Part shown: in pieces, positions 10,954-35,022 of the stretch | Layout of the letters: every line of letters begins with the position of its first letter | How positions within the stretch are numbered: position 1 is the stretch's first letter | Notes under the pieces: generated by a model | What the model was told of the DNA's origin: nothing | Seen by the model: the letters and a program-made list of their open reading frames with translations, nothing else | Database searches by the model: none | Assembly (NCBI GenBank): GCA_019359045.1 | Contig: JAHHIA010000007.1 | Span: forward strand, 1 to 64,000 | Direction: 5' to 3' | Origin: Scytolyngbya sp. HA4215-MV1 | GTDB lineage: Bacteria > Cyanobacteriota > Cyanobacteriia > Leptolyngbyales > Leptolyngbyaceae | Length of the DNA stretch: 64,000 nt | Position numbers and translations under genes: made by a program

Positions 10954-12229
10954 AGGATAACTCAGATCTTGCACCTTTCCCAATAAGCTGGGTCAGGCAA
11001 TGATTTGAGGATAATTTCAAACCCGTGTTGTGCAGCAATCTCTGAACTCATTCGGAGTTGTTTGAGTACTTGAAACCAGATAATTGATGGCAATAAAGTT
11101 TGCAGCGCTAAACGACTGGCGATTTTCCAGTCCAGCACAGGGGGTAGTGACCATTGGTCAATCCAGTGCGCCAATAGATAAGCAATCAGCGACAAAATCA
11201 GCCAGCGGTACACTCCTAACTTGGTGCCTTGACCAAAGCAATGTAAACCAAACTGATGTTTAGCGGTTTTGAAGAAACCCTCAATCGCCCATCGCTTGCT
11301 CCCTAACTGAACGAGATATGCTCCAGAATAAGGATAGGTGGAAGCGACAAATCGCAACTCTCGTTTGCCATCCGCTCGTTTGAGCCAAAACCAGGACACA
11401 GTCAGCGGGGAGTCGATGTCTTTGAGATACACTTGCAGACCCCGCTTGGCATGGCGGTAAAGCTCCTTGAGACAACGCCCATCTTGTAAGGTGCGATTGC
11501 TCCTGAGTCCGACGACAGGTCGCCAAGAGCGACTGCGAACAGCCTTGAGAAACTCGACAGTGCCAAACTCGGTATCAGCTTGCACAATCACGACTCGAGC
11601 GTTGAGCAAAGACTTGGGCACTGTTGCCAACAACTTGCACCCCAACTGGGCAGGATAGGCATTGCCCTTGCCCCGCCAAACCCGAAAGCTCCGAGGCACT
11701 CGCCATTCCCCAACGACCAAGTAGAGGACAACCAGGTGCAGACCCCGTTTGCCGTTCAAAAACCGTATCCAAGGGTCTGGTGCCTGGGGGGCCGAGGTCG
11801 GTGTACTCAAATGCCAAAACTTGCCACTTTTCTCCAAGGTCGTTAGGTCAATCAAAATGCGGATTGGAATTTTGGCATGCGGCAGATGCGTGGCAATCTG
11901 CTGCAAAATCGCTTGACGAGTCGTGCGAATCACACTGAGAGTGGGCCAACGATAGCGGTTGAGAAACCGACTTAACGAACTGGCGGATTTGACGGAGGTA
12001 TGGGCAGGTAAGGCATGACCTTGAGCGTCTAGGAACAACCCCAATAAAGCCTTGAGACTGGCTTTTTGATAGGCACTAGGCATCAAGCAGAGGAGGCTAT
12101 ACACTAGCCCTTGGGCGTGTTGAAGGATGGTTTCCATGACCGTCTTCTGATTTTTTGCTACGCCCTTGCTTTCAGATTTTGGCTCCTTTGGCAACCTCAC
12201 TGAGAATGGTGCAAGATCTCAGCTATCCT
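10954..12229 (-). mobile_element. IS4-family insertion sequence, about 1.28 kb
   Basis: One transposase gene is bounded by imperfect inverted repeats. The left end is AGGATAACTCAGATCTTGCA; the right end, read inward, is AGGATAGCTGAGATCTTGCA. The two ends differ at two of 20 positions. The transposase stop codon lies inside the left repeat. I could not find a convincing target duplication. The element looks complete. Confidence 0.8.
10962..12200 (-). CDS. IS4-family DDE transposase
   Basis: A 412-residue transposase. The DDE residues are visible: IRILIDLTTL (first D, near 143), VVIVQADTEFG (second D, near 215), and the E in KRWAIEGFFKTAKHQFGL (near 318), which also supplies the YREK-like signature of the IS4 family. 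Full length and without interruption, so potentially active. It cuts and re-joins the ends of its own element. It fills nearly the whole element, leaving only the terminal repeats. Confidence 0.9.
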   Translation of the reverse strand: MRLPKEPKSESKGVAKNQKTVMETILQHAQGLVYSLLCLMPSAYQKASLKALLGLFLDAQGHALPAHTSVKSASSLSRFLNRYRWPTLSVIRTTRQAILQQIATHLPHAKIPIRILIDLTTLEKSGKFWHLSTPTSAPQAPDPWIRFLNGKRGLHLVVLYLVVGEWRVPRSFRVWRGKGNAYPAQLGCKLLATVPKSLLNARVVIVQADTEFGTVEFLKAVRSRSWRPVVGLRSNRTLQDGRCLKELYRHAKRGLQVYLKDIDSPLTVSWFWLKRADGKRELRFVASTYPYSGAYLVQLGSKRWAIEGFFKTAKHQFGLHCFGQGTKLGVYRWLILSLIAYLLAHWIDQWSLPPVLDWKIASRLALQTLLPSIIWFQVLKQLRMSSEIAAQHGFEIILKSLPDPAYWERCKI

Positions 12230-14426: not shown

Positions 14427-15476
14427 TTATGGCAGACCTATCCAGGCTTTTGCCACCAGAGTTGCCACTGTCGTGACAGGGTCTGCCAGGGCGATCACGC
14501 CATCTAATGCCTTCTTCAGGGTTGAGATCGCCTTGTCCACAAGACTGCGATCGGGTTGGGGTTTCTGCAACTCAGCTTCCAGTTTTTGAATTGGAATCGC
14601 TACCATTGCTTTTTCTGTTTCATCAATGGCATTGGTGGTAGCGATCGCCTGCTTCAATTGACTTAATGCACCTAACGCTGCCTGTAAATCAGGATTCGTG
14701 ACGGTTGTCTGAGTACTGGTTTGGTTTAAATTGACATTGCCCTCTGCCTGAATGGTGTTGAAGGGATTGTTACTACCGCTAATCGTGACGTTACCGAAAG
14801 ATTGAGATGGGGCTGGTCGCAACGGTTCTGCGATCGCTGCCGCAGTACTCTCTGGTGGTAACACCTGACCTGCCGTTTGATCCGCAGGTGCATTACTACT
14901 GCGACGCTTTCGGTTTTTCAGCACCGGCGTTGAGTACTCCGAACTACCTTCTAAGGCGATCGCGCTACAGCCAATCCTGTACGCCTCATCGTAGGGACTA
15001 CCTGCACCTAGCGCATCATAAAAGCCTTCCGCAAACTGAACTGCTGACTTGTCCCCGATCGGCTGATTCATGCCAATTACACAATCCACAAACTGGTGAA
15101 TTGCGGTCGCCTGGATCTCTGAATAGCAGGCATTCAGCAAGACACACTCAATCTCCCCTGTCTCAAAGATGCCAAATAGCCCTGCTAATGCTTCTGTGCT
15201 GACGAGTTGCACTTTCCCAGCATCATTTTCCAGTACGAGTCCCTTTTCTCCGGTGCCATGTCCAGAAAAGTGAACAATCTGTGGTCGATGATCCAGCAAT
15301 GCCCGTCGCAAATCCATTGTTCGTGCTGCCAGTTTGGTGATGATTTGAAAGCGATCTCGGTAGCGCGATCGTTGCAACGCCTCCTCAATTCGCCTTACTT
15401 CTGCATCTAAGCCCAATGGATTTGAACCTGTATTGCTTGGATTTGCAGTCAGAATGAGAATTTTGATCATGTTCAT
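14427..15476 (-). CDS. CHAT-domain (caspase-like) protein with effector-linked C-terminus
   Basis: About 349 residues from MNMIKIL (15476); an upstream ATG is possible. Residues 1-190 are a CHAT protease domain with catalytic HFSGHG (near 68) and LLNACYSE (near 113), so it is likely active. Next comes a beta-type motif NVTISGSNNPFN...GNVNLNQT (near 245-270), a helical region and a hydrophobic C-terminus (ALDGVIALADPVTTVATLVA). CHAT proteases in bacteria are activated in conflict systems to cleave partner proteins. The beta motif recurs near the N-terminus of the nSTAND1-WD40 protein at 19015-22161, suggesting the two associate. Confidence 0.8.
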   Translation of the reverse strand: MNMIKILILTANPSNTGSNPLGLDAEVRRIEEALQRSRYRDRFQIITKLAARTMDLRRALLDHRPQIVHFSGHGTGEKGLVLENDAGKVQLVSTEALAGLFGIFETGEIECVLLNACYSEIQATAIHQFVDCVIGMNQPIGDKSAVQFAEGFYDALGAGSPYDEAYRIGCSAIALEGSSEYSTPVLKNRKRRSSNAPADQTAGQVLPPESTAAAIAEPLRPAPSQSFGNVTISGSNNPFNTIQAEGNVNLNQTSTQTTVTNPDLQAALGALSQLKQAIATTNAIDETEKAMVAIPIQKLEAELQKPQPDRSLVDKAISTLKKALDGVIALADPVTTVATLVAKAWIGLP

Positions 15477-15715
15477 AAAGTGCTCACTCTTGGGTTGACT
15501 GAATAGCAGCAGCGCAATGAGAATTATCACTGTCTCAAGAATTGATTGCTACCGCCACGTTAAATTCTTTACATTCGGTTAAATAGCTTTCTCAGAAAAC
15601 CATTAACACAGCAATTTTCATTTGTACAAATTTGGTAAGGACAACCTGTTGCGTAGGTGTGTTAGGCAACGCGTAACGCAGGTTTTTCCGAGGTCTGAAA
15701 TCGCTTTTCTAAAAG

Positions 15716-17837: not shown

Positions 17838-18054
17838 CCCGCGATCGTTCTCGTAGTCGAGGCAGAGCTTACTCCTACTCAAGCTGTCGTTACATTCACA
17901 GAAGCGGTAGTTATGTCTGCACAAGTTGTCGTTCCGTCCAAACAAGCTGTTCTAATTTCCGCGTGGGTTGTCGTTACTTCCGTAGAAGTTGTCGTTAGGA
18001 ATGATGAAGCTGTCGTTATTTCCGCTTCACCGGACGTTACTAACGGTGAAGCGA
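17838..18054 (+). repeat. 21-bp degenerate tandem repeat array (about 10 units)
   Basis: Consecutive 21-base units approximate GAAGCTGTCGTTACTTCCGCA and carry many substitutions. Because 21 is a multiple of three the tract stays open on both strands (a 110-aa plus ORF at 17760-18092 and an 80-aa minus ORF), giving AVV.SAQ-like heptads. I do not call either a gene. A closely related array follows the second MNT-HepT module (32969-33135). Confidence 0.75.
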
Positions 18055-18092
18055 TCGTGGAGTTTATCGACTCAATTGTTATCGATGTCTGA

Positions 18093-18551
18093 GTAAATGC
18101 AAGATCGCTCTTTTTAATCAATGCGATTTCAAGATAATTTATACATTGGTTTTTCCCTCAAATTTTCATGCGCTTGCCTTGGGGCATCTCTCAAAAGAAC
18201 TGCTTACAAACATCTATCATTTTCTACAGAATGATGGATTTTAAATTCCTGTCGCACTATGCTCGATTGGCAAACTCTTACTTATCAACACTGGCTTGCT
18301 CTGGACTGCTAAAGAGGGATAAATCTTAAGTTATCTGTCTCCAAACAGTTCTAACCAATAAAATATAAAAATTATTTGTTTAAAGAACAATTTCAGCCAA
18401 TATTATTTAATAGACTTGTCGAGTAAAACAACAAAAATAAACTAAGATCTCTGCTAAGAGAGCTACAGCATTTTTTGGAAATTGATTAAAATGTCTTCTG
18501 GGCAGGGCTTTCAAAGACCTTTCTTTATATTGCTAGACAACTCTAATTCAT
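18093..18551. other. AT-rich convergent intergenic region
   Basis: About 460 bases between the repeat array and the 3' end of the 138-aa gene. No supported ORF. The base composition is more AT-rich than the flanks. No clear terminator hairpin. Confidence 0.45.
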
Positions 18552-18968
18552 TTAGCAATTACGGAGATATATTTCCCTTAGAAGGCTTGATATTTCTCGC
18601 TTAAGACTAGATAAAACCTCGTCAGAAATTCCAGTTTTCTTAGAAGTAACATCTAACAAATTCACGGAAATTTCTTGGAGGACAGTTCCTATTTTAAGAA
18701 TGTACTCGTAGTAATCTTCATCATACTGCTCACCTTCCTCTTTTAGAAGAAGCCAGTTTAATAATGCATCACTGGAAGCCTCTATCGAATTGTTAAAACG
18801 AGCATCCGCTGATCGATGAAGCTCATTTCCAATTTCTTCACGAACGTTTTCCAGCCTTGGTATAATTTCTTGCAAATTGTGTATATCATCAGCCGCAATT
18901 TGAAGAGCTGACATTAATAATTCAAATTCATTTTTCTTTTTACACTTTTCAGGTCTTTTCGTAGACAT
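18552..18968 (-). CDS. 138-aa helical hypothetical protein, third gene of the nSTAND operon
   Basis: A charged, nearly all-helical protein of 138 residues (FELLMSALQIAADDIHNLQEI..., SSDALLNWLLLKEEGEQYDED...). No family recognised; no signal peptide or membrane helix. It starts 46 nt after the stop of the nSTAND1-WD40 gene on the same strand and lies before an AT-rich intergenic region, so it is probably the last gene of that operon. It could be an accessory or regulatory subunit. Confidence 0.65.
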   Translation of the reverse strand: MSTKRPEKCKKKNEFELLMSALQIAADDIHNLQEIIPRLENVREEIGNELHRSADARFNNSIEASSDALLNWLLLKEEGEQYDEDYYEYILKIGTVLQEISVNLLDVTSKKTGISDEVLSSLKREISSLLREIYLRNC

Positions 18969-19014
18969 AAAACCTCAAAAAATACTGCAGAGTCTACTAT
19001 TGAGAAACAAGATA

Positions 19015-22000
19015 TTAAGACTTAATATTTCCTATATACCTTTTACATATCTTAAATAGATTTCTATGAGATTGTACATCTCTTGTCAAATAGTTCTTTA
19101 GGATTGCACATCCTTCTGTCAGGAGAATATCACTATCCTTAGGATGAGTCAAGATATTTTCTTTATACTGGTTGATTTTCCAGATCCTAATCATGCCACC
19201 TTCCTCGGCAGAGGCCAAAAACATCTCTAAAATAGATCCAGAAATATCATTTGATGGACGTCTAAAAGAAATTCGCGTTACTGCTCCACTATTACCATCT
19301 AGCAACTCCTTAGGCTTTTTTAAAGAAGCTTTGCTTCTGCGCCATTCTTTCAATAGCTCATCTATCTCCCAAATTTTAATATTTGTACTTGACTCAACCG
19401 TAGCTATCAACTTTCCATCCGTACTGAAAGTTACATAATAGAAGCTATGATCTCGATCTACAGCTCTTCCAATCAATTCGCCTTTTGAGTTTCTTAAATA
19501 AATATTGCCATTATCATCACAGGATACAACCATGTCTCCTTGGGGACTAAAGTCTACTGAAAAAGTAGTGCCTAGATGGGATTGGACAATATCTTGAGAT
19601 GTATCAATAAAAGTTGGCTTTGGTACTTTCTCTTTAATATCCCAAAAAGCAATATTAAATTTACGCTCGGTGCCAGTTGTAACTAAAAGTGATTCATTGT
19701 TTGGGCTAAAGGCTATACCTAATACTTGATCTGTGTGTCCTGAGTCCTTGAGGATACGAAAAATCCTTCGAGTCTTTAAATCCCAAATAATAACTCCACG
19801 ATTCAGACCAGAAGCTGCAAGCTTTTGATTGCTTTTGCTAAATCTTACGTCATAGACGTAATCTCCATAGTTAAAACTATGAATTAGGTTTCCTTTTATA
19901 TCCCAAACCTTCACAGTTTTATCAATACTGGCAGATGCAAATAATTGACCATCAGAGCTGAATCTGATTGACCTAATAATATCATTATGCTTTTTGATGG
20001 GAGCGGATACCTTATTCTTCGCTAGATCCCAAATTCTAATACTTCCATCTTCTCCACCTGAAACGATTGTTTTTCCATCTGGGCTAAAACTCAAGCCATA
20101 AGCCCCTCCTGCATGTGCTTGAATTCTATCTCGCTCTTTTACATTTAAAAAAACAGTCTGAATTCTTTGCAAATCAGAAGAATCTTCACGTCCAATTTCT
20201 CTAAGTTCACTCAAAGTCTCTATGCTGGCTTCTAAGGCTTCGAGCTGTTTGTGAACGCTGAGTAATGTTTCAGCTTTTCCGATCAATACTCCTGATATTA
20301 GAGCTTTTTGTTGTGATTCTTGAGCTAATCGTGCCTGAGAAAATAATCCTAATCCAAGCGAGGTTACTGCCAATACCCCTGCGACGATTGCAAATCTTGT
20401 TCGTTGCTGTTCAGATTTCAGCCTCTTCTGCTCCTCTGTCAATGCTTTTTCTGTAGCTTTACGAGTTTCAGATTCCGCGATCACTGCTTCATCGGCTTTT
20501 TGACGAGCTTCTTCTTCTGCGTTTGCCCTTGCTTCTGCTATCTCCCTTAATTTTCGTTCTTGTTCTAGCTTTTCATTGGCTTCGAGATCGTGATTCTCTC
20601 GACTGTATTGTAAATATTCTGTTTCCACCTTAGGTAGTCTAGGCTGATCGCGTTTGATCCATTCCTCAAAAACTGCTAATCGCCCTAGAGATAGTAGATA
20701 GTCTTTTGATTGCTGCTGGTCTTGCCATTCCTGACAATCATTGGTGAGTTGATTACGCAAACGAATCGCTTGACGGTTCTCTTGAATCAGTTGCTTGAGT
20801 AACGGCCATTGAGTCAAGAGTGCTTCGTGGGCAACCTCCACGGCTTTTTCATTGGTTACAATCAACCGCTGCTTGACCAGTTTTCCAACCACCCGATCCA
20901 CCTGTTCCGGGGCGTCAGAGATCGCTCTTAATTGCTCCCAGCCAGCTCTTTTTCGTGTCACTTCCTGATCCTGACCAAGCTGAACCAGTTCCATCATCAA
21001 TTGACGCAACAAAGCTTGCTCTGTGGGAGTGAGTTGACAGTAACTTGCATCCGCATGGCGTGCCAGCGCTCCTTGCACTTCTCCAATCGCTGTATAAGCT
21101 TCATGGGTGAGCTGCTTTCCAGTTCGTCGCTGCCACAGTTCTGTGAGGGCAAATTCTAAAAGTGGTAAATTTCCTGGTTCAGATTCCACATCCTGTAAAA
21201 TCCGTTGCACCAAGCCTGCCTCAAACGTCACTCCTAACTTTGCTGCTGGTTGCTCAATGACCGCTTGCAATTCGTCCCGGTTCATGGCTCCCAGCTTTAT
21301 ATCCCCTGTCTGTAAAATATCAGCGAAAGGACGGTAGGACAGGGCATTGCCCAAAAAATCTGCTCGCATGGTAGCTACCAGCACCAATAGGGGTGGCGTA
21401 GCCTGGACAGCAGAGAGGTTAGCCAGTAAGCAATCCAGAAACTGATTGCGAGTTGAATCTTCCGTGCAAAGGGTGTACAACTCCTCAAACTGATCCGCAA
21501 TCAGTAAGATGCGATGCTGGGGATGGTGTTGCTGAATCTGGGCAACCACATCCTTTAGCGATACTTCCCCATTGCGCAAAAAGTTCGCTAACTTGCGGGC
21601 TTGGGCAATCTGATCCGTGGCATCTTGCTCCGGCTGGTACAGTGGCACCAGTGCCAGGGAAAGTGCATGAAACGGGTCTTCCCCTGGTCGAAAATGGGTA
21701 AATAACCAGTGCCCTGCTCGTTGCAACTCGGGCACCAATCCGGCAAAGACTACCGACGACTTGCCACTGCCCGATGCTCCCAAGACTGGAATAAAAGCAA
21801 GGGTCTGAACGGCTTGCACCAGTTCAGTCACAACGGTTTGTCGCCCAAACTGGACAGCTTGCACCAATTCAGTCACAAACACGTCTCGCCCAAAGAAGAA
21901 CTCCGCATTGTCGGGACCGAAGTGAAATAAGCCGCGATAAGGGCAGGGTAGAGTGTCAGCCTGTGCCGCAGACTCTACCGGGGCAAGACTGGATTCTTCC

Positions 22001-22161
22001 CGGTAGTAGTAATAGTTGTAGATGATGTGACGGGACTGGTCGATCGCCGCATTCCCCGCTGCACTCACCACGGCAACGGGATTCTCATCGCCCGAAACCG
22101 TCACATCTCTGACAGACTGTTGTTGATGTACTGGCAGATTGTCAGAATCTGGCTGATTCAT
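19015..22161 (-). CDS. nSTAND1 NTPase with C-terminal WD40 propeller
   Basis: A 1048-residue protein. In order: an N-terminal beta motif (RDVTVSGDENPV...AAGNAAIDQS, about 18-45), a short YNYYYYRE segment, an nSTAND1-type AAA+ module beginning CPYRGLFHFGPDNAEFFFGR with Walker A GASGSGKSS near 130 and ILLIADQFEELY as Walker B, a coiled coil (520-600), one membrane helix (RFAIVAGVLAVTSLGLGLF) and about seven WD40 repeats to about residue 1010. Such STAND proteins are sensors that oligomerise on ligand binding and trigger an effector. The ATG overlaps the stop of the 73-aa gene. Fifteen residues (..FGRxxxVTELVQAVQ) are tandemly duplicated before Walker A. Confidence 0.88.
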   Translation of the reverse strand: MNQPDSDNLPVHQQQSVRDVTVSGDENPVAVVSAAGNAAIDQSRHIIYNYYYYREESSLAPVESAAQADTLPCPYRGLFHFGPDNAEFFFGRDVFVTELVQAVQFGRQTVVTELVQAVQTLAFIPVLGASGSGKSSVVFAGLVPELQRAGHWLFTHFRPGEDPFHALSLALVPLYQPEQDATDQIAQARKLANFLRNGEVSLKDVVAQIQQHHPQHRILLIADQFEELYTLCTEDSTRNQFLDCLLANLSAVQATPPLLVLVATMRADFLGNALSYRPFADILQTGDIKLGAMNRDELQAVIEQPAAKLGVTFEAGLVQRILQDVESEPGNLPLLEFALTELWQRRTGKQLTHEAYTAIGEVQGALARHADASYCQLTPTEQALLRQLMMELVQLGQDQEVTRKRAGWEQLRAISDAPEQVDRVVGKLVKQRLIVTNEKAVEVAHEALLTQWPLLKQLIQENRQAIRLRNQLTNDCQEWQDQQQSKDYLLSLGRLAVFEEWIKRDQPRLPKVETEYLQYSRENHDLEANEKLEQERKLREIAEARANAEEEARQKADEAVIAESETRKATEKALTEEQKRLKSEQQRTRFAIVAGVLAVTSLGLGLFSQARLAQESQQKALISGVLIGKAETLLSVHKQLEALEASIETLSELREIGREDSSDLQRIQTVFLNVKERDRIQAHAGGAYGLSFSPDGKTIVSGGEDGSIRIWDLAKNKVSAPIKKHNDIIRSIRFSSDGQLFASASIDKTVKVWDIKGNLIHSFNYGDYVYDVRFSKSNQKLAASGLNRGVIIWDLKTRRIFRILKDSGHTDQVLGIAFSPNNESLLVTTGTERKFNIAFWDIKEKVPKPTFIDTSQDIVQSHLGTTFSVDFSPQGDMVVSCDDNGNIYLRNSKGELIGRAVDRDHSFYYVTFSTDGKLIATVESSTNIKIWEIDELLKEWRRSKASLKKPKELLDGNSGAVTRISFRRPSNDISGSILEMFLASAEEGGMIRIWKINQYKENILTHPKDSDILLTEGCAILKNYLTRDVQSHRNLFKICKRYIGNIKS

Positions 22162-22379
22162 GGGTCAGTTGGGGCATCTATGACAATGGGTTTTCTGATG
22201 GCTGGCTGGCTGATGGCTTCAGATTCATCCACCTTCTCCACCAAATTGATCACACCCGGATCTCGGTCATTTCGAGGAGAGCGAGGTCCATCTGCGGTTT
22301 CTGTTTCAACCTCCGGAACAATGGGCTGACGAATCACTTCAGGCTCTTTTGCATCGGGCACTTTCGGCTCTTCACTCAT
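22158..22379 (-). CDS. 73-aa acidic/proline-rich protein, first gene of the nSTAND operon
   Basis: The start at ATG 22379 is chosen because GGAGA lies upstream and because earlier codons add an unrelated 12 residues. The product is a disordered, charged peptide (MSEEPKVPDAKEPEVIRQPI, ... RDPGVINLVEKVDESEA...) with no domain. Its TGA overlaps the ATG of the nSTAND1 gene (ATGA), which implies translational coupling. It may be an interaction tail or a dissociable inhibitor of the STAND protein. Confidence 0.65.
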   Translation of the reverse strand: MSEEPKVPDAKEPEVIRQPIVPEVETETADGPRSPRNDRDPGVINLVEKVDESEAISQPAIRKPIVIDAPTDP

Positions 22380-22641: not shown

Positions 22642-25600
22642 CTAAACATTGATCGCCCCCAGGGCAGTTAACGTCGATCTCTGGGCGGGGGTTAACCCGA
22701 TCGCCCCGGTAATAGTCATCCCTTCGTAAGGACGATCGACGCTCAAGATTTTCAGGCAGGCTCCAGTCTTACTATCCCAGATCCGGATGCTTCCATCTTC
22801 ACTACAACTGGTAATTATTCCTCCTTTGTGATTAAACGTAACCATCCATACAATCTGTTGGTGTCCGGTCAACGTTTGCAAACAGGCTCCGGTCAACCCA
22901 TCCCACAACTTCACCTGGCAATCCTCACTGCCACTAGCTAACGTGGCTCCATCCGGACTAAACGCGATCGATCTCACTCGATGGGTATGTGCCTGCCAAG
23001 TACGGACACATGCTCCGGTTTGCAGATTCCAGAGTTTGATGGTGCGATCGCCACTGCCACTTGCCAACCACTTGCCATCGGGACTGTAGGCGACCGACAG
23101 CACCCAATCTGTATGCCCTTGCAAAGTTTGTAAACAGTCGCCCGTGTTCACATCCCAAATTTTCACACTGTGGTCATCACTACCACTGGCAATTGTCCTG
23201 CCCTGTGGACTCATCGCCACAGACTTAACCCGCTGACGATGTCCGACTAAGGTTTTCAAACATTCGCCTGAACGCACATCCCATAGTTTGATCGTTTTAT
23301 CACCACTACCACTGGCTAATAGGTGACCCATGCCCGATGGCAGACTCAGGTCAATGGGACTAAACGCGATCGTCTGTACCCAATCCCTGTGACCCCAAAA
23401 TGTTTTCAACCACTCAGATGTATGAGCATTCCATAACTGAATCGTGTGGTCATCACTGCCACTGGCGAACCACTTGCCGTCCGGACTAAACGCCACCGAT
23501 GTCACCACATCACTGTGACCTGCTTGAATTTTGATACACTGACCTGTTTCGATATCCCACAGTCGAATGCGTTGATCTTTACTGCCACTGGCTAATCTGC
23601 GATCGTCGGGACTAAAGGCAATGGAAGTGATCCAGTTACTATACGATTCAATCGTGGTTAAACATTGACTCGATTGAATCTCCCAAATCCTGACTGTCTG
23701 GTCGTCGCCACTGCTGACGAGTGTTCTCCCATCGGGGCTAAAGTTCACTAACCAAACTCGATAAGTATGCCCCTGAAAGATTTTGAGACATTGGCGAGTT
23801 GTGACATCCCAGACTCTGATCGTTTTATCTTCACTGCCTGTTGCCAGAAATTGACCATCGGCGCTAAATGCAACTGCCCAAATTTTAGTCTTCTCATCCA
23901 GGAGTGTGCCCACGCATTCCCCCGTCTGCACATTCCAAAATTTCACCCTTTGCTCATCACTCCCGGTGACCAACGTGGTGCCATCTGGACTTAACGCCGT
24001 AGACAGCATCCAGTTAACGTGGGTGGTAATAGTTTGCGTACACTCGCCGGATGGAAGCTGCCAGAATCGAATGGTTTGATCATCGCTCGTGCTAATTAAG
24101 GTCTGCTGATCGGGACAAAAGATCACGGTTAGTATGCGATCGCGATGTCCCTGCAACGTCTGAATGCACTGCCAGGTTGACAGATCCCACAACCGAATCA
24201 CAGGATCATTGCTGCCGCTGGCTAACTGTTGACCATTCGGGCTAAAAGCGATCGTTTGGATGCTACTCGTATGTCCCTGCAAGGTTTTGAGACATTGCCC
24301 ACTTTGCCCATCCCAGAGTCGAATGGTTTGATCTATACTGCCACTCGCCAAAATTTTCCCATCGGGACTAAACGCCACACATCTTACCCAGGCAGAATGC
24401 CCTTCCAAAATTGCTATCTGCCGCTGATCGGCAATGTGCCACAGCAAAAGATTACGGTCAATCCCGATCGCCAAGAGGGTGCCATCAGGGCTAAAAGCAA
24501 CCGCCAAAATATCTCCCAGGGTTTGTGTAAAAACTGATTTCGTCAAATCTGCATGGGCAAAATTCACCCCATGCAAGTTCACACCCTGTAAGTAAACCTG
24601 CCATACGGTCAAATGGGAGAAATCATACCCACTCAAGTTCACATCGAGTTGACTGAACAAATTTAATAAGTTTCCGGCTGCATAGCCGGGAAGTTGGGAA
24701 GGTCGAGCTTTGAGAATAGACAACGTCTGATCAAGTTGCTGTTTTACCGCTACCTGGTTGCCTAAATGCATCTGCAATTGCGCCAAAACTGGCTTTAGAA
24801 TCAATCGAGCTTGAGTATTGCGCAAATAGTCTTTGGTTTGTGCCTTGCTGAGGGCGTGGCTGTCGAATAATGCAAAGTTTCCTTGCATCAATTCACGACT
24901 AATGTGTTCGATCAAGCGTTCTGTGACATATTCCATCACCACAGGTTGCTGGGTAAACATCGCGATTTTGCCGGTCAGGGGAGAGATCATCTTTTCGATC
25001 AAAGATCGCTGTTGCAAGGATTCCAATGATTCCAGTAGTGCTCGTGGCGCAGCAGGCGACACCAGATCTTCGCGCAACGTTGACAGGGATGCCCATTCCC
25101 GTTCGATCGCCAACCAGTACATCATCTGCTGCTCAAGAACTGTCAGCCGATTGAACTGCTGCTCCAGTAAATCCGAAATATCCCCAAAAACAACGCTGCC
25201 CTGTTCTAAAAACTGAGCGACATCCCCATCAAATAATTCTTGAATTGTGGTTGAGGCAATTTTCAGTGCCAGTGGATTGCCAGAATAATAATCAATTAAG
25301 GTGCGAGTGTGGGTTTCTAACGATGAAAAGCCTTTCTCTTTTAGAATTGCCTGGGCGTTTTCTGGGTCTAAGCCTGCCAATCGCAGCGATCGAATCGGTA
25401 AGGTTTTACCCTCTTTCGCATTCAGACCGCCCGGTTTTTCTCGGCTTGTCAGTACCAAGCAACTCTGATGTCGGCTTTCGCCCACACTTTGAAAAAACTG
25501 GGCATAGTCTTCATAGCCTTCTCGATAGGAGCCGGCTCGGTCTCCGGTACACAAAATCGATTCCACATTGTCTAACACCAGCAAACAACGGGAATGCTGC

Positions 25601-26748
25601 AAATGTTCAACTAAGCGCGTCATTCGGCGACCGATCGCCTCAGGGAGTTCACCCTCGCCTTGAGAGGAAAGGACACCTAACCAATCTGCCAACAACTCTG
25701 GCAGGGGAGGCGCATTTCGGAGCGATCGCCAGATCACAAACGCAAACGCAGCCTTAACCCGTTCTGCCAGCTTGATAGATAAGGCTGTTTTACCGATCCC
25801 ACCCATACCAATCAAAGTGATTAGACGGCAACGATCGTCCCCAATCCAGCGTTCCAGGATTTCCAGTTCCTTCGAGCGTCCGTAGAACACAGAAACATCC
25901 ATCGCTTCGCCCCAATCTTGCTTACCGTTGTTTGATGAAAGCGTTGGCGTGTCTGGCTGTGGATTCAGGGGAAGAACAGGCGCGGATTGGGGGGAAGCCG
26001 GGGGAGCGATATGATAAAGCGGCAGGGGGTCTTGCAGTCCCTTGAGTTGCCGCTCACCGAGGTAGTCGGCTGACACTGGAAGATGAGCTTTGACCACATC
26101 GTATACAGACTGAGACAAGCAAATGCCACCGGGGGAAGCCTGGGTCTGTAAGCGAGCAGCCAGATTAACACGGCTGCCCATCACGTCATTATCGTTGTAC
26201 ACCACATCCCCCAGGTCGATGCCAATGCGATGCTGCAAAATCTCTGTAGCAGGCAGAGCTGCAGCGGTTTCTGCTAGAGTCTGTTGGATTGAGATCGCAC
26301 AAAGTACTGCTTGCTCGGCACTATTGAAATAGAGCAGCAAGCCATCCCCCAGACTTTTTAGCACGCGTCCGGCGAACTGCTGGCAAAGGGTTTGCATCTG
26401 TTGCAAGTCTCGCTGCACTAGTGTCAGAGTATGATGCTCATTCGCTGCCATTTGCGGGGTGAATGAGACGACATCCGTAAAAACGATCGCTGCCAGGGTA
26501 CGTTGACTTAGGGGATCGTTGAGTTCTGCATTGAGGTCTGCGATCGCGTCACAGTCTAACGACAGCTTTTCGCACAGTTCCAGGAAGGTGGCGCGATCGA
26601 CGGGTTTGCCCGTCAGGAAGTTGCTGATGGTTGCCAGGGACAGCCCACTCTCTTCCGCTAGGGCGCGCTGGCTAGAAAAGCCACTGCGACGGACTGCAAG
26701 TTTGACGGTATTGATGCACGCCGGACGCACCCTGAGTGACCTGGACAT
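22642..26748 (-). CDS. HTH - adenylate cyclase - NB-ARC - WD40 fusion protein
   Basis: A 1368-residue protein from ATG 26748, which has GAGG six bases upstream; ATGs at 26772 and 26790 are alternatives. Order: XRE-like HTH (about 10-70, QRALAEESGLSLATISNFLTG); class III nucleotide cyclase (about 85-250) with FTDVVSFT, LKSLGDGLLLYF and DVMGSRVNLAARL, i.e. both metal Asp, the ATP-selecting Lys/Asp pair and the transition-state Asn/Arg; NB-ARC STAND module with GMGGIGKT near 314 and LLVLDNVE; a pentapeptide-like stretch; and 14 WD40 repeats (about 748-1340). Predicted: ligand sensing by WD40, NTP-driven oligomerisation, cAMP synthesis. Single-gene unit. Confidence 0.88.
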   Translation of the reverse strand: MSRSLRVRPACINTVKLAVRRSGFSSQRALAEESGLSLATISNFLTGKPVDRATFLELCEKLSLDCDAIADLNAELNDPLSQRTLAAIVFTDVVSFTPQMAANEHHTLTLVQRDLQQMQTLCQQFAGRVLKSLGDGLLLYFNSAEQAVLCAISIQQTLAETAAALPATEILQHRIGIDLGDVVYNDNDVMGSRVNLAARLQTQASPGGICLSQSVYDVVKAHLPVSADYLGERQLKGLQDPLPLYHIAPPASPQSAPVLPLNPQPDTPTLSSNNGKQDWGEAMDVSVFYGRSKELEILERWIGDDRCRLITLIGMGGIGKTALSIKLAERVKAAFAFVIWRSLRNAPPLPELLADWLGVLSSQGEGELPEAIGRRMTRLVEHLQHSRCLLVLDNVESILCTGDRAGSYREGYEDYAQFFQSVGESRHQSCLVLTSREKPGGLNAKEGKTLPIRSLRLAGLDPENAQAILKEKGFSSLETHTRTLIDYYSGNPLALKIASTTIQELFDGDVAQFLEQGSVVFGDISDLLEQQFNRLTVLEQQMMYWLAIEREWASLSTLREDLVSPAAPRALLESLESLQQRSLIEKMISPLTGKIAMFTQQPVVMEYVTERLIEHISRELMQGNFALFDSHALSKAQTKDYLRNTQARLILKPVLAQLQMHLGNQVAVKQQLDQTLSILKARPSQLPGYAAGNLLNLFSQLDVNLSGYDFSHLTVWQVYLQGVNLHGVNFAHADLTKSVFTQTLGDILAVAFSPDGTLLAIGIDRNLLLWHIADQRQIAILEGHSAWVRCVAFSPDGKILASGSIDQTIRLWDGQSGQCLKTLQGHTSSIQTIAFSPNGQQLASGSNDPVIRLWDLSTWQCIQTLQGHRDRILTVIFCPDQQTLISTSDDQTIRFWQLPSGECTQTITTHVNWMLSTALSPDGTTLVTGSDEQRVKFWNVQTGECVGTLLDEKTKIWAVAFSADGQFLATGSEDKTIRVWDVTTRQCLKIFQGHTYRVWLVNFSPDGRTLVSSGDDQTVRIWEIQSSQCLTTIESYSNWITSIAFSPDDRRLASGSKDQRIRLWDIETGQCIKIQAGHSDVVTSVAFSPDGKWFASGSDDHTIQLWNAHTSEWLKTFWGHRDWVQTIAFSPIDLSLPSGMGHLLASGSGDKTIKLWDVRSGECLKTLVGHRQRVKSVAMSPQGRTIASGSDDHSVKIWDVNTGDCLQTLQGHTDWVLSVAYSPDGKWLASGSGDRTIKLWNLQTGACVRTWQAHTHRVRSIAFSPDGATLASGSEDCQVKLWDGLTGACLQTLTGHQQIVWMVTFNHKGGIITSCSEDGSIRIWDSKTGACLKILSVDRPYEGMTITGAIGLTPAQRSTLTALGAINV

Positions 26749-28811: not shown

Positions 28812-30062
28812 ATGGATGTCAATCAGCAGCAAGCGGAAAATCTTGATGAAACCTCTTTAGGCGATCTGAGCCAAAACAAAAATTTTGAGGACAATGATAC
28901 AGGTATTGAAATCGAAGAGGAAGAAATTGTAGAACCCTTCGATCCCACTAAAATTAAGATTGACGCTAGACAAATAACTATTGATTTAGTTCTTAACAGG
29001 ATTAGATTTGGCGAAATCGAGCTTTCACCTGATTTTCAACGTGAATCTAATATTTGGAATGATACAGCTAAAAGTAGATTGATTGAGTCTATGCTCATTC
29101 GTATACCACTGCCAGCATTTTACATTGATGCAACTGATGAAGATAAGTGGGTGGTAATTGATGGGCAGCAACGCTTAACAACTGTTAAGCAGTTTGTGAT
29201 TGGTGGCCTTAATGGTGAAAAAGATCAAGTTAATGAAGATAAAGAAAAATTTAGACTGTCCAAATTAGAGTTCTTAACTCAGTTTAATGGTAAAAGCTAT
29301 GACGAGCTTCCTAGAAACTATCAGCGACGAATAAATGAGACTCAAATAACAATTTATTTAATTGAAAAGGGCACTCCAGAGGAGCTAAAGTTTAATATTT
29401 TTAGACGCATTAATACTGGTGGCTTACCTTTATCATCTCAGGAAATTCGTCATGCTCTTAATCAGGGGAAAGTAACTAAATTCTTGGAAAAACTGGCTGT
29501 GTCGAAAGAATTTAAGAAGGCAACTGCAAATGGCGTTCCAGATAAACGTATGGCAGCCCGTGAAGTTGTTTTACGTTTCCTGGCATTTAAGATTACTCCT
29601 TTTCCTCAATACAATGCTACAGAGCTTGACACATTCTTAAACGGTGCAATGAAAACGATGAATTACATGTCTGATGAAGATCTTGAAAGACTTGAGAGAG
29701 ATTTTTTAAGGACAATGTTGATCGCGGCAGACATATTTGGTAATGATGCTTTTCGCAAACGTTTTGATAGGAAGGCTACAAGATCGCAGGTTAATAAAGC
29801 TCTTTTTGAATCCTGGTCAGTGAATTTAAGCTCACTTAATGACCGCCGAGTTCAAAAGCTAAAGTCTAGAAAAAACCTTCTTCTGAATGAATTTATTAAG
29901 CTAATGAATGAGGATCTTTACTTCGTTAATTCTATTTCGCAGGGAACAGGAGATATTAGAAAAGTTAAATACCGATTTAGTAAAATTCAAGAATTAATTA
30001 GCGAAGTCTTAGAGGCTGAAATAGAAGTGGCAATGAGTTTGTTTGATGTCAAGTATGATTAA
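28812..30062 (+). CDS. DUF262 (GmrSD/ParB-like) domain protein
   Basis: A 416-residue protein with an acidic N-terminal tail followed by the DUF262 core. Visible motifs are ITIDLVLNRIRFGEIELSPDFQRE, IRIPLPAFYIDA and WVVIDGQQRLTTVKQFV, the last being the DGQQR signature of the ParB/GmrS-like nucleotidase fold. NIFRRINTGGLPLSSQEIRH follows. DUF262 domains act in GmrSD-type restriction of modified DNA, but the DUF1524 HNH partner domain is absent here. Instead the gene overlaps an AAA ATPase gene by a few bases, and a third gene follows, defining an operon of putative defence function. Confidence 0.85.
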   Translation: MDVNQQQAENLDETSLGDLSQNKNFEDNDTGIEIEEEEIVEPFDPTKIKIDARQITIDLVLNRIRFGEIELSPDFQRESNIWNDTAKSRLIESMLIRIPLPAFYIDATDEDKWVVIDGQQRLTTVKQFVIGGLNGEKDQVNEDKEKFRLSKLEFLTQFNGKSYDELPRNYQRRINETQITIYLIEKGTPEELKFNIFRRINTGGLPLSSQEIRHALNQGKVTKFLEKLAVSKEFKKATANGVPDKRMAAREVVLRFLAFKITPFPQYNATELDTFLNGAMKTMNYMSDEDLERLERDFLRTMLIAADIFGNDAFRKRFDRKATRSQVNKALFESWSVNLSSLNDRRVQKLKSRKNLLLNEFIKLMNEDLYFVNSISQGTGDIRKVKYRFSKIQELISEVLEAEIEVAMSLFDVKYD

Positions 30063-31182
30063 TTCGGTGGAATTGTTAAACTTTAAATGTTTTGAAAACC
30101 AGAGCTTTGAACTTAGAAAAATCACTCTACTGACAGGACTTAATAGCTCTGGGAAATCATCTTTCATTCAATCATTACTGTTACTGCGGCAATCATATTA
30201 CCAGGACCTATTGCCAGATGTAGGTTTAGCATTGAATGGCGATCTTATTACGATTGGTACAGCCCAAGATGCACTATTTGAAGGCGCAGCGCTGCTTGAG
30301 GATGCAGTGGAAGATCAAATTGGCTTTAGAATTACTTGGCAAGATGGGCAAAGAGGGGAATGGTTATTTAACTATGACCGAGTAGCTGATGTACTGAGTT
30401 TAGCCTCACAACCTACCACATCTGAAATTTACAACACTAGCCTTTTTAGTAACACTTTTCACTATCTCACAGCTGAGCGTATTGGACCTCGCCCGTTTTT
30501 TGAAACATCTGAATTTCAAGTGCGTCAACGTAAGCAAATCGGTACTAGAGGCGAGTATGCCGCTCATTTTTTGTCGGTTTACAGAGATGAACATATTCCG
30601 AATTCTATCTTGAGTCATCCGAAAGCCGAATCTTCTAGTTTGATTGAGCAAGTAAGAGCTTGGATGGGAGAGGTAAGTCCGGGTACAAAGATCGAAAGAA
30701 AACTTAGTCCAGATATGGGTTTAGTGAGTTTGCAGTTTTCTTACGGACTTAGTAACCCTTACCGAGCAACTAACGTTGGATTTGGTATTACTTACACGCT
30801 CCCAATCCTCTTAGCAATTCTCGCCTCTCCTCCCGGTACGCTTATCTTGCTTGAAAACCCCGAAGCTCATCTTCATCCTAAAGGACAGTCAATGATGGGA
30901 CATTTGCTAGCACTTGCAGCAAGTTGTGGTGTTCAGGTTGTTGTAGAAACACATAGCGATCATGTTCTAAATGGCATTCGCCTTGCTGTTCACGGAGGCA
31001 AAATTAACCCAGAGGATGTCTGCTTACACTTTTTCCGGCGCATTGAAGAGAATGATCAGGCTCTTACCCAGGTTGTCACGCCTCAAATTGATCGAAATGG
31101 TCGGATCAACCAGTGGCCCGATGGATTCTTTGATGAATGGGATAAAAGCCTAGATGCCTTACTAGAACCAGCACAGGAGTAA
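30055..31182 (+). CDS. AAA (DUF3696/OLD-like) ATPase of the DUF262 operon
   Basis: About 375 residues from ATG 30055 (MINSVELLNFKCFENQ), which overlaps the DUF262 stop; ATG 30046 or TTG 30043 are alternatives. Walker A is GLNSSGKSS near 25. A large insert follows, then the ABC-type ending LILLENPEAHLHPKGQSMM (Walker B with acidic residue) and VVVETHSDHVLNGIRLA (switch His). This is the SMC-like ATPase core of AAA_15/DUF3696 proteins, which in several defence systems pairs with a nuclease or effector. No TOPRIM nuclease domain is fused, so the effector must be one of the flanking proteins. Confidence 0.85.
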   Translation: MINSVELLNFKCFENQSFELRKITLLTGLNSSGKSSFIQSLLLLRQSYYQDLLPDVGLALNGDLITIGTAQDALFEGAALLEDAVEDQIGFRITWQDGQRGEWLFNYDRVADVLSLASQPTTSEIYNTSLFSNTFHYLTAERIGPRPFFETSEFQVRQRKQIGTRGEYAAHFLSVYRDEHIPNSILSHPKAESSSLIEQVRAWMGEVSPGTKIERKLSPDMGLVSLQFSYGLSNPYRATNVGFGITYTLPILLAILASPPGTLILLENPEAHLHPKGQSMMGHLLALAASCGVQVVVETHSDHVLNGIRLAVHGGKINPEDVCLHFFRRIEENDQALTQVVTPQIDRNGRINQWPDGFFDEWDKSLDALLEPAQE

Positions 31183-31185
31183 AGC

Positions 31186-32139
31186 ATGGCTCTAGACATT
31201 GTTTTAAATGAATTGTCTTTGCAATCTCCTGCTTCTGACACCTTAACTGCTCGAATGTGGTTGTCTGATTTTATTCAAACCATAAGAGCTATAAAAGCTC
31301 AAGCTGGTAGGCAAGCAATTCTCCGAACGCAATATGATTTTCACAACATCTTACTGGCACCTGATTATCCTTTACGACGTTGGTTGAACGATAGCGAAGT
31401 CGATCGTGAAGAACAGAGATTCATCAGAACCCTCGCAACAAAAGCTCCTTTCTCCCAAGATGTTCTAGATGCTGAAGTTCAAGCAATTGAAGGTAATATT
31501 GGCTCTTGTGAGTTTCGCTATCAAGGGCAGCAAGCGATCGGTTTGGGTGTCGCTTGCATACTCGACATAATTCCAGTGAGCTTAACTTCAAAACCTTGCT
31601 GGGATTGTAGCTATTTAGATTTAGATGTAATACGTATTGATGGAGACGATGAAAAAATAACAACCGTCCATGCAAGCCGTAAAGAACATTTGCAGGATCA
31701 CATTGAGTGGATCAAGTCTCGACTGCTTAGAGGAATTCACGATGGTTTAACACTTTGGAACAATAGAAATGAGCTGTTTCCCAATTTACAGTTTTGTGAT
31801 TCTGTTGGTGAGCAGCTAAAGGCTCTTCGTGTTGGGAATGTAATGTTAAATCCTATTGAAAAGAGATTGTTTGATTTGCAAGAGTACGCTGTATCCTGGG
31901 TAACAGGTGCTTTTGATTCAGACAACATTGCTTGTAAAGCTACTCTTGAAAGTGAAGCAACATTGAACCAATACTCACAGGAGCGAACTTTTGCCTGTCC
32001 CGATGGTCAAGACCGTGTTTTTAGCTGGCACGTTCGACTTACACCTTTGGCTTGGCGAATCCATTTTTATCCAAGTCAATCAGGAAAAATAATTATTGGA
32101 TACATTGGTCATCATTTACGTACAGCTAGATTCAAATAA
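31186..32139 (+). CDS. 317-aa protein of unknown family, third gene of the DUF262 operon
   Basis: Starts 3 nt after the ATPase stop. The N-terminal half is alpha/beta with no recognised motif. A pair of cysteines occurs in KPCWDCSYLDLDVI near 140. The C-terminal 70 residues (FSWHVRLTPLAWRIHFYPSQ, GKIIIGYIGHHL) have the spacing of a small beta-sheet with arginines and a final GHHL, reminiscent of RelE-type RNase toxins; this is a weak impression only. Tight coupling implies it acts with the DUF262 and ATPase proteins, possibly as effector or target recogniser. Confidence 0.7.
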   Translation: MALDIVLNELSLQSPASDTLTARMWLSDFIQTIRAIKAQAGRQAILRTQYDFHNILLAPDYPLRRWLNDSEVDREEQRFIRTLATKAPFSQDVLDAEVQAIEGNIGSCEFRYQGQQAIGLGVACILDIIPVSLTSKPCWDCSYLDLDVIRIDGDDEKITTVHASRKEHLQDHIEWIKSRLLRGIHDGLTLWNNRNELFPNLQFCDSVGEQLKALRVGNVMLNPIEKRLFDLQEYAVSWVTGAFDSDNIACKATLESEATLNQYSQERTFACPDGQDRVFSWHVRLTPLAWRIHFYPSQSGKIIIGYIGHHLRTARFK

Positions 32140-33930: not shown

Positions 33931-35022
33931 TAGCAATCCCAAGTCAGTTGTGAGAATCTAGAGAGGATTCAAATACGGTTGCGAACGGTTCTATGTTAGA
34001 AGACTTGACTGATTTCATTGACTCCAACCCCGATGCACGTGAACTCAAACGAGCAGTAGCTGTCCAAATGTTTCTCAAAGGGTATAAGCATCGAGAGATT
34101 GGGGAGAGTATCGGTGTGAGTTCAGGCTTCATTAGCAAATGGACGGGAGTCTACGAACAGTTGGGGGTATCTGGGTTGAAACTGGGATATCCCGGATCTG
34201 TCGGATACCTAGAACCGGAACAGCGGCAAGCAGTGATCGCTTGGTTGAAGCGCAAGAATTACTGGAATCTGGCGGAACTGCAAGCCTATATTGAAGCGGA
34301 GTATGAGGTGGTGTTTGACTCCAAGCAAAGTTACTACACTTTGTTTGAGCAAGCTGGCATTCGCTGGAAGAAGACTCAGAAGCGTAATCCTAAAGCTGAC
34401 CCCGAATTGGTAGAGAAAAAAACAGGAAATTATGTCGTGGTTGGACAGGCATCGGCAGGAAATTGTGACCAGAGGTCTTCTTTGAGGACGAATGCCACCT
34501 GCTCTGGGGTGATCTGTGCGGCTATGTGTGGGGCAAAACTAGCGAACGCATTGAACTGCCCATCACCAACGAACGTCTCAAGCAAACCTATTATGGAGCC
34601 GTTGATTTTTACACCCAACGCTGCCTGATTCAACCGACTGAGAAGGGCAATTCCGAGGGTACGATTGCTTTTCTCAAGTACTTGCTGGCTCAATGTCCCA
34701 ACTCTCGCATTGCCCTGATTTGGGATGGGGCCACCTACCATCGCTCTCAAGCCGTCAAAGACTACTTAGAATCGGTCAATCAGGGACTTGATGAGTCCAA
34801 TTGGAAAATCACCTGCATTCGCTTTGCTCCCAAGGACCCAAAGCAGAATCCGATTGAAGATATTTGGTTGCAGGCAAAGCGATTTATTCGAGAGTACTAC
34901 CATTTGTGCCAATCGTTTAATGCTGTTAAATTCCTCTTTGAGTTTGTGACTCACCGTCAAGTCTTTAACTTTGCAAAGCTTTTTACCTACGGTTGCTTCT
35001 CACAACTCATTTAGGATTGCTA
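33931..35022 (+). mobile_element. IS630-family insertion sequence
   Basis: Inverted ends TATAGCAATCC(C/T)AA...AGTTGTGAGAA occur at 33931 and, in reverse, up to 35022, with TA at both edges as expected for IS630 target duplication. Between them is one transposase gene in three frames. It has inserted into the 5' part of a short plus-strand ORF whose remainder ends in attC site A. Confidence 0.85.
33993..35014 (+). pseudogene. IS630 transposase, split over three frames
   Basis: Frame 1 (33993 to about 34420) encodes the HTH region (FLKGYKHREIGESIGVSSGF, FISKWTGVYEQLG). Frame 2 (about 34423-34475) gives QEIMSWLDRHRQEIVTRG. Frame 3 (about 34475-35014) gives VFFEDECHLLWGD, IALIWDGATYHRS and DPKQNPIEDIWLQAK, i.e. 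all three DDE residues. The first shift lies in an A7 run (34416-34422), where slippage is plausible. The second, at AGAGG (34471-34475), has no slippery context. The enzyme is therefore probably inactive. Confidence 0.8.

What the first reader, a model, noticed from the sequence alone, without database searches (positions are those of the whole stretch)
22642..26748. Single chain with HTH, adenylate cyclase, NB-ARC and 14 WD40 repeats
The cyclase keeps all catalytic and ATP-selective residues I can identify and is fused to a DNA-binding-like domain and to a STAND sensor. This predicts ligand-triggered, oligomerisation-dependent cAMP production, an unusual output for a NB-ARC/WD40 protein.
Basis: partly seen in the sequence, partly recalled or inferred. 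Interest (0 to 1): 0.62.

Follow-up and report, generated by a model that had tools for sequence, protein, structure and literature searches.

The report
Apaf-1-like receptor carrying a cyclase
A cyanobacterium encodes an immune-receptor-like protein, built like the human cell-death sensor Apaf-1, in which a seemingly intact cAMP-making enzyme sits at the effector end, and it belongs to a small conserved gene cluster that may act as an alarm system.

Summary
ORF 22642..26748 (-), 1368 aa, reads HTH, class III cyclase, NB-ARC, 14 WD40 blades. All six catalytic and ATP-selecting residues are present (D92, K131, D135, D188, N195, R199), and the P-loop is GMGGIGKT. Models match solved adenylyl cyclases (Z 25), Apaf-1 and STAND/NLR NTPases.

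(1) The gene heads a three-gene unit: a 73-aa ORF (22158..22379) overlaps by ATGA an nSTAND1-WD40 gene (19015..22161). The same unit, with the same overlap, occurs in two genomes of another family. (2) The nearest NB-ARC-WD40 relatives have the same HTH (one also a similar small downstream ORF) but no cyclase. NB-ARC and cyclase trees both reject one origin, so the cyclase probably entered the HTH/NB-ARC seam at least twice. (3) The cyclase is the most constrained domain, and a candidate defence operon (NsnABC) starts 2 kb upstream.

Best reading: a STAND receptor whose assembly pairs cyclase domains and makes cAMP, probably in conflict or cell-fate signalling. Catalysis, trigger and downstream effector are untested. 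Cyclase-NB-ARC-HTH fusions are known in mycobacteria and cyclase effectors in bacterial conflict systems: a new variant of a known kind.

The parts
22642..26748 (-). gene 1: HTH - class III cyclase - NB-ARC - 14 WD40 blades, 1368 aa
   Evidence: full-length orthologues in L104 and L105 (68% identity)
26518..26727 (-). N-terminal HTH-like domain (residues 8-77)
   Evidence: HTH_3/HTH_31 just below cut-off; HipB-like by sequence at E 0.012; modelled confidently as helices; 61-77% identical in relatives with and without a cyclase
26005..26502 (-). class III nucleotide cyclase domain (residues 83-248)
   Evidence: PF00211 E 7e-13; model pLDDT 87.5, best solved match 3mr7 Z 25.1, Ma1120 Z 24.6, Rv1900c Z 23.1
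26152..26475 (-). span of the six catalytic codons: D92, K131, D135, D188, N195, R199
   Evidence: alignment of 62 related cyclase domains, the window and two solved references
24679..25920 (-). NB-ARC / STAND NTPase module (about residues 277-690), P-loop at 25786-25809
   Evidence: PF00931 over cut-off; P-loop and Walker-B-like motifs; Foldseek to ADP-bound Apaf-1 1z6t E 3e-11; VIA-align to STAND 6mfv Z 22.8 and NRC1 NB-ARC 8bv0 Z 21.1
24544..24651 (-). short pentapeptide-repeat-like connector between NB-ARC and propellers
   Evidence: sequence GYDFSHLTVWQVYLQGVNLHGVNFAHADL, also present in the paralogues; reading as a pentapeptide repeat is by eye
22699..24543 (-). 14 WD40 blades, spacing suits two 7-bladed propellers
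   Evidence: the split into two propellers is inferred
22158..22379 (-). gene 2: 73-aa ORF with a VIRxPIV...RSPxNDRxPG...IRKPIVI motif pattern; its stop overlaps the start of gene 3 (ATGA)
   Evidence: homologues at the same place in L104, L105 and after the cyclase-less gene in L150; dN/dS about 0.2; no Pfam family
19015..22161 (-). gene 3: nSTAND1 - WD40 protein, 1048 aa
   Evidence: PF20703 E 5e-116; its first 554 aa are 55-56% identical to gene 3 of L104/L105 against 33-43% for the other nSTAND1 proteins of the first 11 genomes searched; closer solitary relatives (55-61%) exist elsewhere
22003..22119 (-). N-terminal beta-prone segment of gene 3 (residues 15-53)
   Evidence: aligned; relatives in L147-L149 share the core of this segment with the end of the small ORF upstream
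28812..32139 (+). context, not part of the unit: NsnA/NsnB/NsnC candidate defence operon
   Evidence: PADLOC E 1e-144, 1e-124, 2e-101

Best explanation
Gene 1 is a STAND/NLR-type receptor in which a class III adenylyl cyclase domain serves as the effector. Shown by sequence: domain order, intact cyclase and NTPase motifs, a conserved three-gene unit, and strong constraint on the cyclase. Inferred: the WD40 propellers hold the protein off until they bind a ligand; the NB-ARC then exchanges nucleotide and assembles protomers; assembly brings cyclase domains together in pairs, because class III cyclases form their active site at a dimer interface; and cAMP is made as an alarm. Genes 2 and 3 are partners expressed with it; gene 3 is probably a second STAND sensor or relay. 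The most likely setting is biological conflict (phage) or cell-fate signalling. The cyclase is a module that was plugged into an existing HTH-NB-ARC-WD40 receptor, and probably more than once.
For: Complete catalytic set and fold match to active adenylyl cyclases solved with ATP analogues. NB-ARC with P-loop and Apaf-1/STAND fold. Cyclase dN/dS 0.059 between two congeneric orthologues, against 0.23 HTH, 0.15 NB-ARC and 0.14 WD40. Three-gene unit with ATGA overlap in three genomes of two families. Nearest NB-ARC relatives share the HTH but lack the cyclase, and one has a gene 2-like ORF. One origin of cyclase-bearing proteins is rejected on the NB-ARC tree (p-AU 1e-7) and on the cyclase tree (p-AU 0.014). 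Cyclase relatives head nSTAND1-WD40 and TIR-AAA_35 proteins, as an exchangeable effector would. Neighbouring NsnABC operon and CHAT gene and, in L104, a caspase-like nSTAND1-WD40 gene next door. cNMP cyclases are described as effectors in conflict systems (eLife 52696).
Against: No activity, ligand or oligomer has been measured. No cNMP-binding effector lies in the window and CRP-like boxes are below chance, so the receiver of the cAMP is unknown. The genome has 23 cyclase-domain matches, so a dedicated pathway is not needed. The HTH is below Pfam cut-off. The defence setting rests on neighbourhood and analogy. The unit is rare: three genomes among roughly 390 of the class.
Confidence: 0.55

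Rival explanations
1. It is mainly a transcription regulator of the AfsR/MalT style. The HTH is the output, the NB-ARC-WD40 part switches it, and the cyclase is an auxiliary domain that links target-gene control to ATP or cAMP level; the role is nutritional or developmental, not defence.
For: An HTH-like domain heads this receptor and the cyclase-less relatives that share it. Mycobacterial cyclase-NB-ARC-LuxR proteins have been read this way (PMC4452763). AfsR is one of two PDB sequence matches to the NB-ARC part (E 0.002).
Against: The HTH is weakly conserved as a DNA-binding family (below cut-off) and is replaced by other helical types in paralogues. No shared palindrome lies upstream of gene 1 in the three orthologous loci. 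The cyclase, not the HTH, is the most constrained domain.
Confidence: 0.25
2. The cyclase makes another product (cGMP, or pyrimidine cNMPs as in Pycsar) or is inactive and only binds nucleotide.
For: PADLOC PycC models match weakly (E 2.6e-5 and worse), and the L106 homologue better (E 3e-12). Inactive versions occur in vWA-linked conflict proteins. Rv0386 has a 20% guanylyl side activity (PMC4452763).
Against: The adenine-selecting K131 and D188 pair, both metal aspartates and the N/R pair are all kept, and the domain is the most constrained part of the protein.
Confidence: 0.13
3. Gene 1 is one of many redundant STAND-WD40 genes under weak selection, and the fusion is an accident of domain shuffling without a dedicated function.
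For: The genome holds about ten related NB-ARC-WD40 genes, some broken, and 23 cyclase-domain matches.
Against: The whole architecture, with gene 2 and gene 3, persists at 68% identity across families, with dN/dS far below one in every domain.
Confidence: 0.07

Closest known systems
Apaf-1 (and CED-4, plant NLRs)
   Same: NB-ARC core with matching fold (1z6t E 3e-11; NRC1 NB-ARC Z 21.1); N-terminal signalling part, C-terminal double WD40 propeller as in Apaf-1
   Different: HTH plus cyclase in place of CARD; enzymatic output; no caspase partner gene next to it in the window (one lies nearby in L104)
Mycobacterial Mclx proteins (Rv0386, Rv1358, Rv2488c)
   Same: class III cyclase, AAA/NB-ARC and HTH in one chain (PMC4452763)
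   Different: their HTH is a C-terminal LuxR domain and the cyclase is N-terminal; no WD40; described as nearly exclusive to mycobacteria
cNMP-cyclase effectors of vWA-MoxR-VMAP and related conflict systems (Kaur et al. 2020, eLife 52696)
   Same: cyclase as exchangeable effector coupled to an NTPase-controlled system in multicellular prokaryotes, cyanobacteria included
   Different: there the cyclase is fused to VMAP or vWA components, with MoxR; here it is within a self-contained NB-ARC-WD40 chain
Cyclase-nSTAND1-WD40 proteins of the same order (L046-L049)
   Same: related cyclase (56-60% identity) at the N-terminus of a STAND-WD40 chain of equal length
   Different: different NTPase family (nSTAND1, not NB-ARC), no HTH
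HTH-NB-ARC-WD40 proteins without cyclase (L150, L151, L163)
   Same: HTH 64-70%, NB-ARC 60-64% and, for L150 and L151, WD40 67-69% identical; L150 also has the small downstream ORF
   Different: about 40 residues of linker where the cyclase stands
Pycsar
   Same: class III cyclase proposed to answer infection; weak PycC profile match
   Different: ATP-type selectivity residues, STAND fusion, no cNMP-binding effector gene nearby

Membership tests
Class III nucleotide cyclase | catalytic fold and PF00211 match over cut-off | tested here: met
   49 bits against 21.9; fold Z 25 to 3mr7
Class III nucleotide cyclase | two metal Asp, Lys/Asp for adenine, Asn/Arg for the transition state | tested here: met
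   D92, D135, K131, D188, N195, R199
Class III nucleotide cyclase | cAMP synthesis, dimer-dependent | not testable with these tools
   needs an enzyme assay
STAND / NB-ARC (AP-ATPase) receptor | NB-ARC domain over cut-off with P-loop | tested here: met
   35 bits against 23.5; GMGGIGKT at 314
STAND / NB-ARC (AP-ATPase) receptor | NTPase, helical and winged-helix fold as in Apaf-1 | tested here: met
   1z6t E 3e-11 over 489 columns; 6mfv Z 22.8, 320 residues aligned
STAND / NB-ARC (AP-ATPase) receptor | ligand-triggered, nucleotide-dependent assembly | not testable with these tools
   needs purified protein
Mycobacterial Mclx (cyclase-NB-ARC-LuxR) | N-terminal cyclase followed by AAA/NB-ARC | tested here: met
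   cyclase 83-248, NB-ARC from 277, though an HTH precedes
Mycobacterial Mclx (cyclase-NB-ARC-LuxR) | C-terminal LuxR HTH | tested here: not met
   the C-terminus is WD40; the HTH is N-terminal and HipB/XRE-like
Pycsar | cyclase of the PycC group | tested here: inconclusive
   best PycC profile E 2.6e-5
Pycsar | adjacent effector with a cyclic-nucleotide-binding domain | tested here: not met
   no PF00027 match in the window; genes 2 and 3 have none in Pfam
vWA-MoxR-VMAP ternary conflict system | VMAP, vWA and MoxR components around the cyclase | tested here: not met
   gene 1 and gene 3 carry NB-ARC and nSTAND1 instead; no such match among the proteins scanned around it. Not every ORF of the window was scanned
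BASS-type amyloid NLR signalling pair | shared motif at the NLR N-terminus and the effector C-terminus | tested here: inconclusive
   by eye, the nSTAND1 relatives in L147-L149 share such a segment with the ORF upstream; in the window gene 2 and gene 3 do not visibly share it

The most novel reading that the evidence does not exclude
A bacterial counterpart of the apoptosome whose wheel makes cAMP. An Apaf-1-like NB-ARC-WD40 receptor has an effector slot between HTH and NB-ARC into which the same cyclase family was inserted independently at least twice, and it works with a dedicated small protein and a second STAND sensor in an infection alarm that uses cAMP, otherwise a housekeeping second messenger, as its signal.
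Probability: 0.3. Interest if true: 0.68.

Novelty: new variant of a known kind. Interest (0 to 1): 0.52.

Why it matters
If true, it ties cAMP to NLR-type innate sensing in bacteria, in a protein with the layout of Apaf-1, and gives a simple test of how STAND assembly drives an enzyme that needs pairing. The repeated entry of one cyclase family at the same seam would show that NB-ARC receptors have a defined effector slot, and gene 2 would be a new, so far unnamed partner to follow.

Tried and rejected
The single genome-contig scan gave two partial relatives only: a cyclase-TIR-AAA protein and an HTH start at a contig end. The viral contig scan found none. The plasmid search gave only cyclases at under 42% identity in the rows shown, mostly rhizobial. 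CRP-like boxes: 22 found, 34 expected by chance, so no sign of local cAMP-CRP control. No shared inverted repeat upstream of gene 1 among the three loci, so no autoregulatory operator was found. Rfam and tRNA scans of the window were empty. Chance or frameshift artefact was rejected because two full-length orthologues exist. A single origin of the cyclase fusion was rejected by two AU tests; the cyclase test has long branches and is the weaker one. The idea that gene 2 carries the amyloid-type motif of gene 3 was considered and not supported in the window. Alignment A2 put the HTH of cyclase-less proteins opposite the cyclase, so it was not used for modelling; A6 was used instead. Paper searches for cyclase with NB-ARC or NACHT and WD40 in cyanobacteria found nothing; most subscription journals are not held, so absence there proves little. 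Searches failed on input errors.
Full report
Observation. The frame 22642..26748 (-) is open from an ATG that is kept in both orthologues, and encodes 1368 aa. Pfam gives a cyclase (86-242) and an NB-ARC (304-498) above their cut-offs, HTH families just below theirs, and WD40 repeats to the end. WD-type motifs mark 14 blades. The six class III catalytic positions are all canonical, and all match the solved cyclase 3mr7. The P-loop is GMGGIGKT at 314.

Structure. A model of the cyclase domain (pLDDT 87.5) aligns best to solved bacterial cyclases: 3mr7 Z 25.1, Ma1120 Z 24.6, Rv1900c Z 23.1. A model of residues 1-740 (pLDDT 88.1, pTM 0.64) shows separate, confident HTH, cyclase and NB-ARC parts joined by poorly modelled linkers at 75-81 and 255-275. 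Its NB-ARC part matches ADP-bound Apaf-1 (1z6t, E 3e-11), an archaeal-type STAND protein (6mfv, Z 22.8) and a plant NLR NB-ARC (8bv0, Z 21.1). With the two likely propellers the chain has the layout of Apaf-1, with HTH plus cyclase in place of CARD.

A three-gene unit. Downstream on the same strand lie a 73-aa ORF (22158..22379) and an nSTAND1-WD40 gene (19015..22161), joined by an ATGA overlap. Searching 388 genomes of the class with the first 340 residues gave two further genes matching over the whole query, in genomes G281 and G201 of another family, at 72 and 71% identity; the full proteins are 68% identical to gene 1. Both carry the same small ORF, with the same ATGA overlap, and the same nSTAND1-WD40 gene in the same order. 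The first 554 residues of gene 3 are 55-56% identical to these two, against 33-43% for the other nSTAND1 proteins of the 11 genomes first searched. Some solitary gene 3 relatives in other genomes reach 55-61%, so gene 3 also exists outside this unit. Deeper searches of the two orders concerned found no more members; one search scored only five candidates a genome, so a missed member is possible.

Origin of the fusion. The nearest NB-ARC relatives of the window gene in its own family (L150, L151, L163) have the same HTH, NB-ARC and WD40 but only a linker where the cyclase stands; L150 also has a gene 2-like ORF 135 bases downstream (E 3e-5). Two further proteins (L106, L107) carry a related cyclase between a different HTH type and an NB-ARC. 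On the NB-ARC tree the cyclase-bearing rows need three changes, and holding them as one clade is rejected (p-AU 1.2e-7). On the cyclase tree they are not one clade either (p-AU 0.014), although long branches weaken that test. Gain and loss cannot be told apart by the counts alone, but the two trees together favour separate insertions at the same seam. Other members of the cyclase family head nSTAND1-WD40 proteins and TIR-AAA_35 proteins, one of the latter in the same genome. The cyclase behaves as an exchangeable module.

Selection. Between the two congeneric orthologues the cyclase has dN/dS 0.059, against 0.23 for the HTH, 0.15 for NB-ARC and 0.14 for WD40. Window against G281 gives 0.06 for the cyclase with a high dS, so only the congeneric pair should be leaned on. 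This argues for a working enzyme. Gene 2 and gene 3 are under purifying selection too, about 0.2 each.

Setting. About 2 kb upstream, on the other strand, lie genes that PADLOC names NsnA, NsnB and NsnC, with very strong matches; from memory these belong to a published anti-phage system, Menshen, which I could not confirm in the held papers. A CHAT-domain gene lies at 14427..15530. In G281 a caspase-like nSTAND1-WD40 gene flanks the unit. Such neighbours fit a conflict role but do not prove it. The genome holds 23 cyclase-domain matches and 14 cNMP-binding proteins, none of the latter in the window, so the signal, if cAMP, would probably be read elsewhere in the cell.

Mechanism. Shown: anatomy, motif integrity, conservation of the unit, constraint. 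Inferred from established knowledge of the families: class III cyclases need two domains facing each other, with metal aspartates from one and the adenine and transition-state residues from the other; STAND NTPases assemble on ligand binding. A receptor that keeps its cyclase apart when idle and pairs it on assembly is therefore the simplest reading. Whether a ring of odd or even number serves a pairing enzyme is open. The HTH may bind DNA, help assembly, or be a remnant.

Relation to known kinds. It is a class III cyclase and a STAND NB-ARC protein by tested features. It is not a mycobacterial Mclx protein, since the C-terminal LuxR domain is absent and WD40 present, although it may work like one (PMC4452763). 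It is not shown to be Pycsar: no effector with a cyclic-nucleotide-binding domain is next to it. Cyclases as effectors in NTPase-controlled conflict systems are already proposed (eLife 52696). I therefore place it as a new variant of a known kind. The repeated insertion at one seam and the small conserved partner are the parts I found no description of.

Noticed in passing
window 28812..32139 (+): Three genes matching PADLOC NsnA, NsnB, NsnC (E 1e-144, 1e-124, 2e-101), apparently a complete candidate anti-phage operon next to the unit.
   Followed up: partly
window 49267..53703 (+): 1478-aa protein with three TIR_2 stretches followed by about 14 WD40 repeats; a triple-TIR WD40 protein.
   Followed up: no
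L050 1164..3422 (+), own genome contig C13, and L073 172..2328 (+): The same cyclase family fused to a TIR domain and AAA_35: a chain with two different nucleotide-signal domains.
   Followed up: no
L147, L148, L149: Relatives of gene 3 follow a small ORF (HetE-N-like in L147, E 2e-4) whose C-terminus repeats the nSTAND1 N-terminal segment (FQGEVKGAQVG; YAATSGxGNA), like the BASS amyloid signalling pairs described for bacterial NLRs.
   Followed up: partly
window gene 3, about 21820..21900 (-): A tandem duplication of VTELVQAVQ just before the nSTAND1 P-loop, absent from all seven aligned relatives.
   Followed up: no
window 14427..15530 (-): CHAT-domain protein, possible caspase-like protease.
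   Followed up: no
window 18552..18968 (-): 138-aa ORF directly downstream of gene 3 with a weak protoglobin match (E 0.001, below cut-off), in a low-GC stretch (35% over 18001-20000).
   Followed up: no
window 10962..12200 (-) and 33993..34628 (+): IS701-like transposase and an IS630-like transposase, signs of a mobile neighbourhood. In L105 an integrase-like ORF and an XRE-type HTH ORF lie upstream of gene 1 (judged by eye).
   Followed up: no
L150 17034..17477 (+): After the cyclase-less gene 1 and its gene 2-like ORF, a short ORF starting MGQLTPIALEDGTTIYIEATDD is followed by a response-regulator start at the contig end, where gene 3 stands in the window.
   Followed up: no
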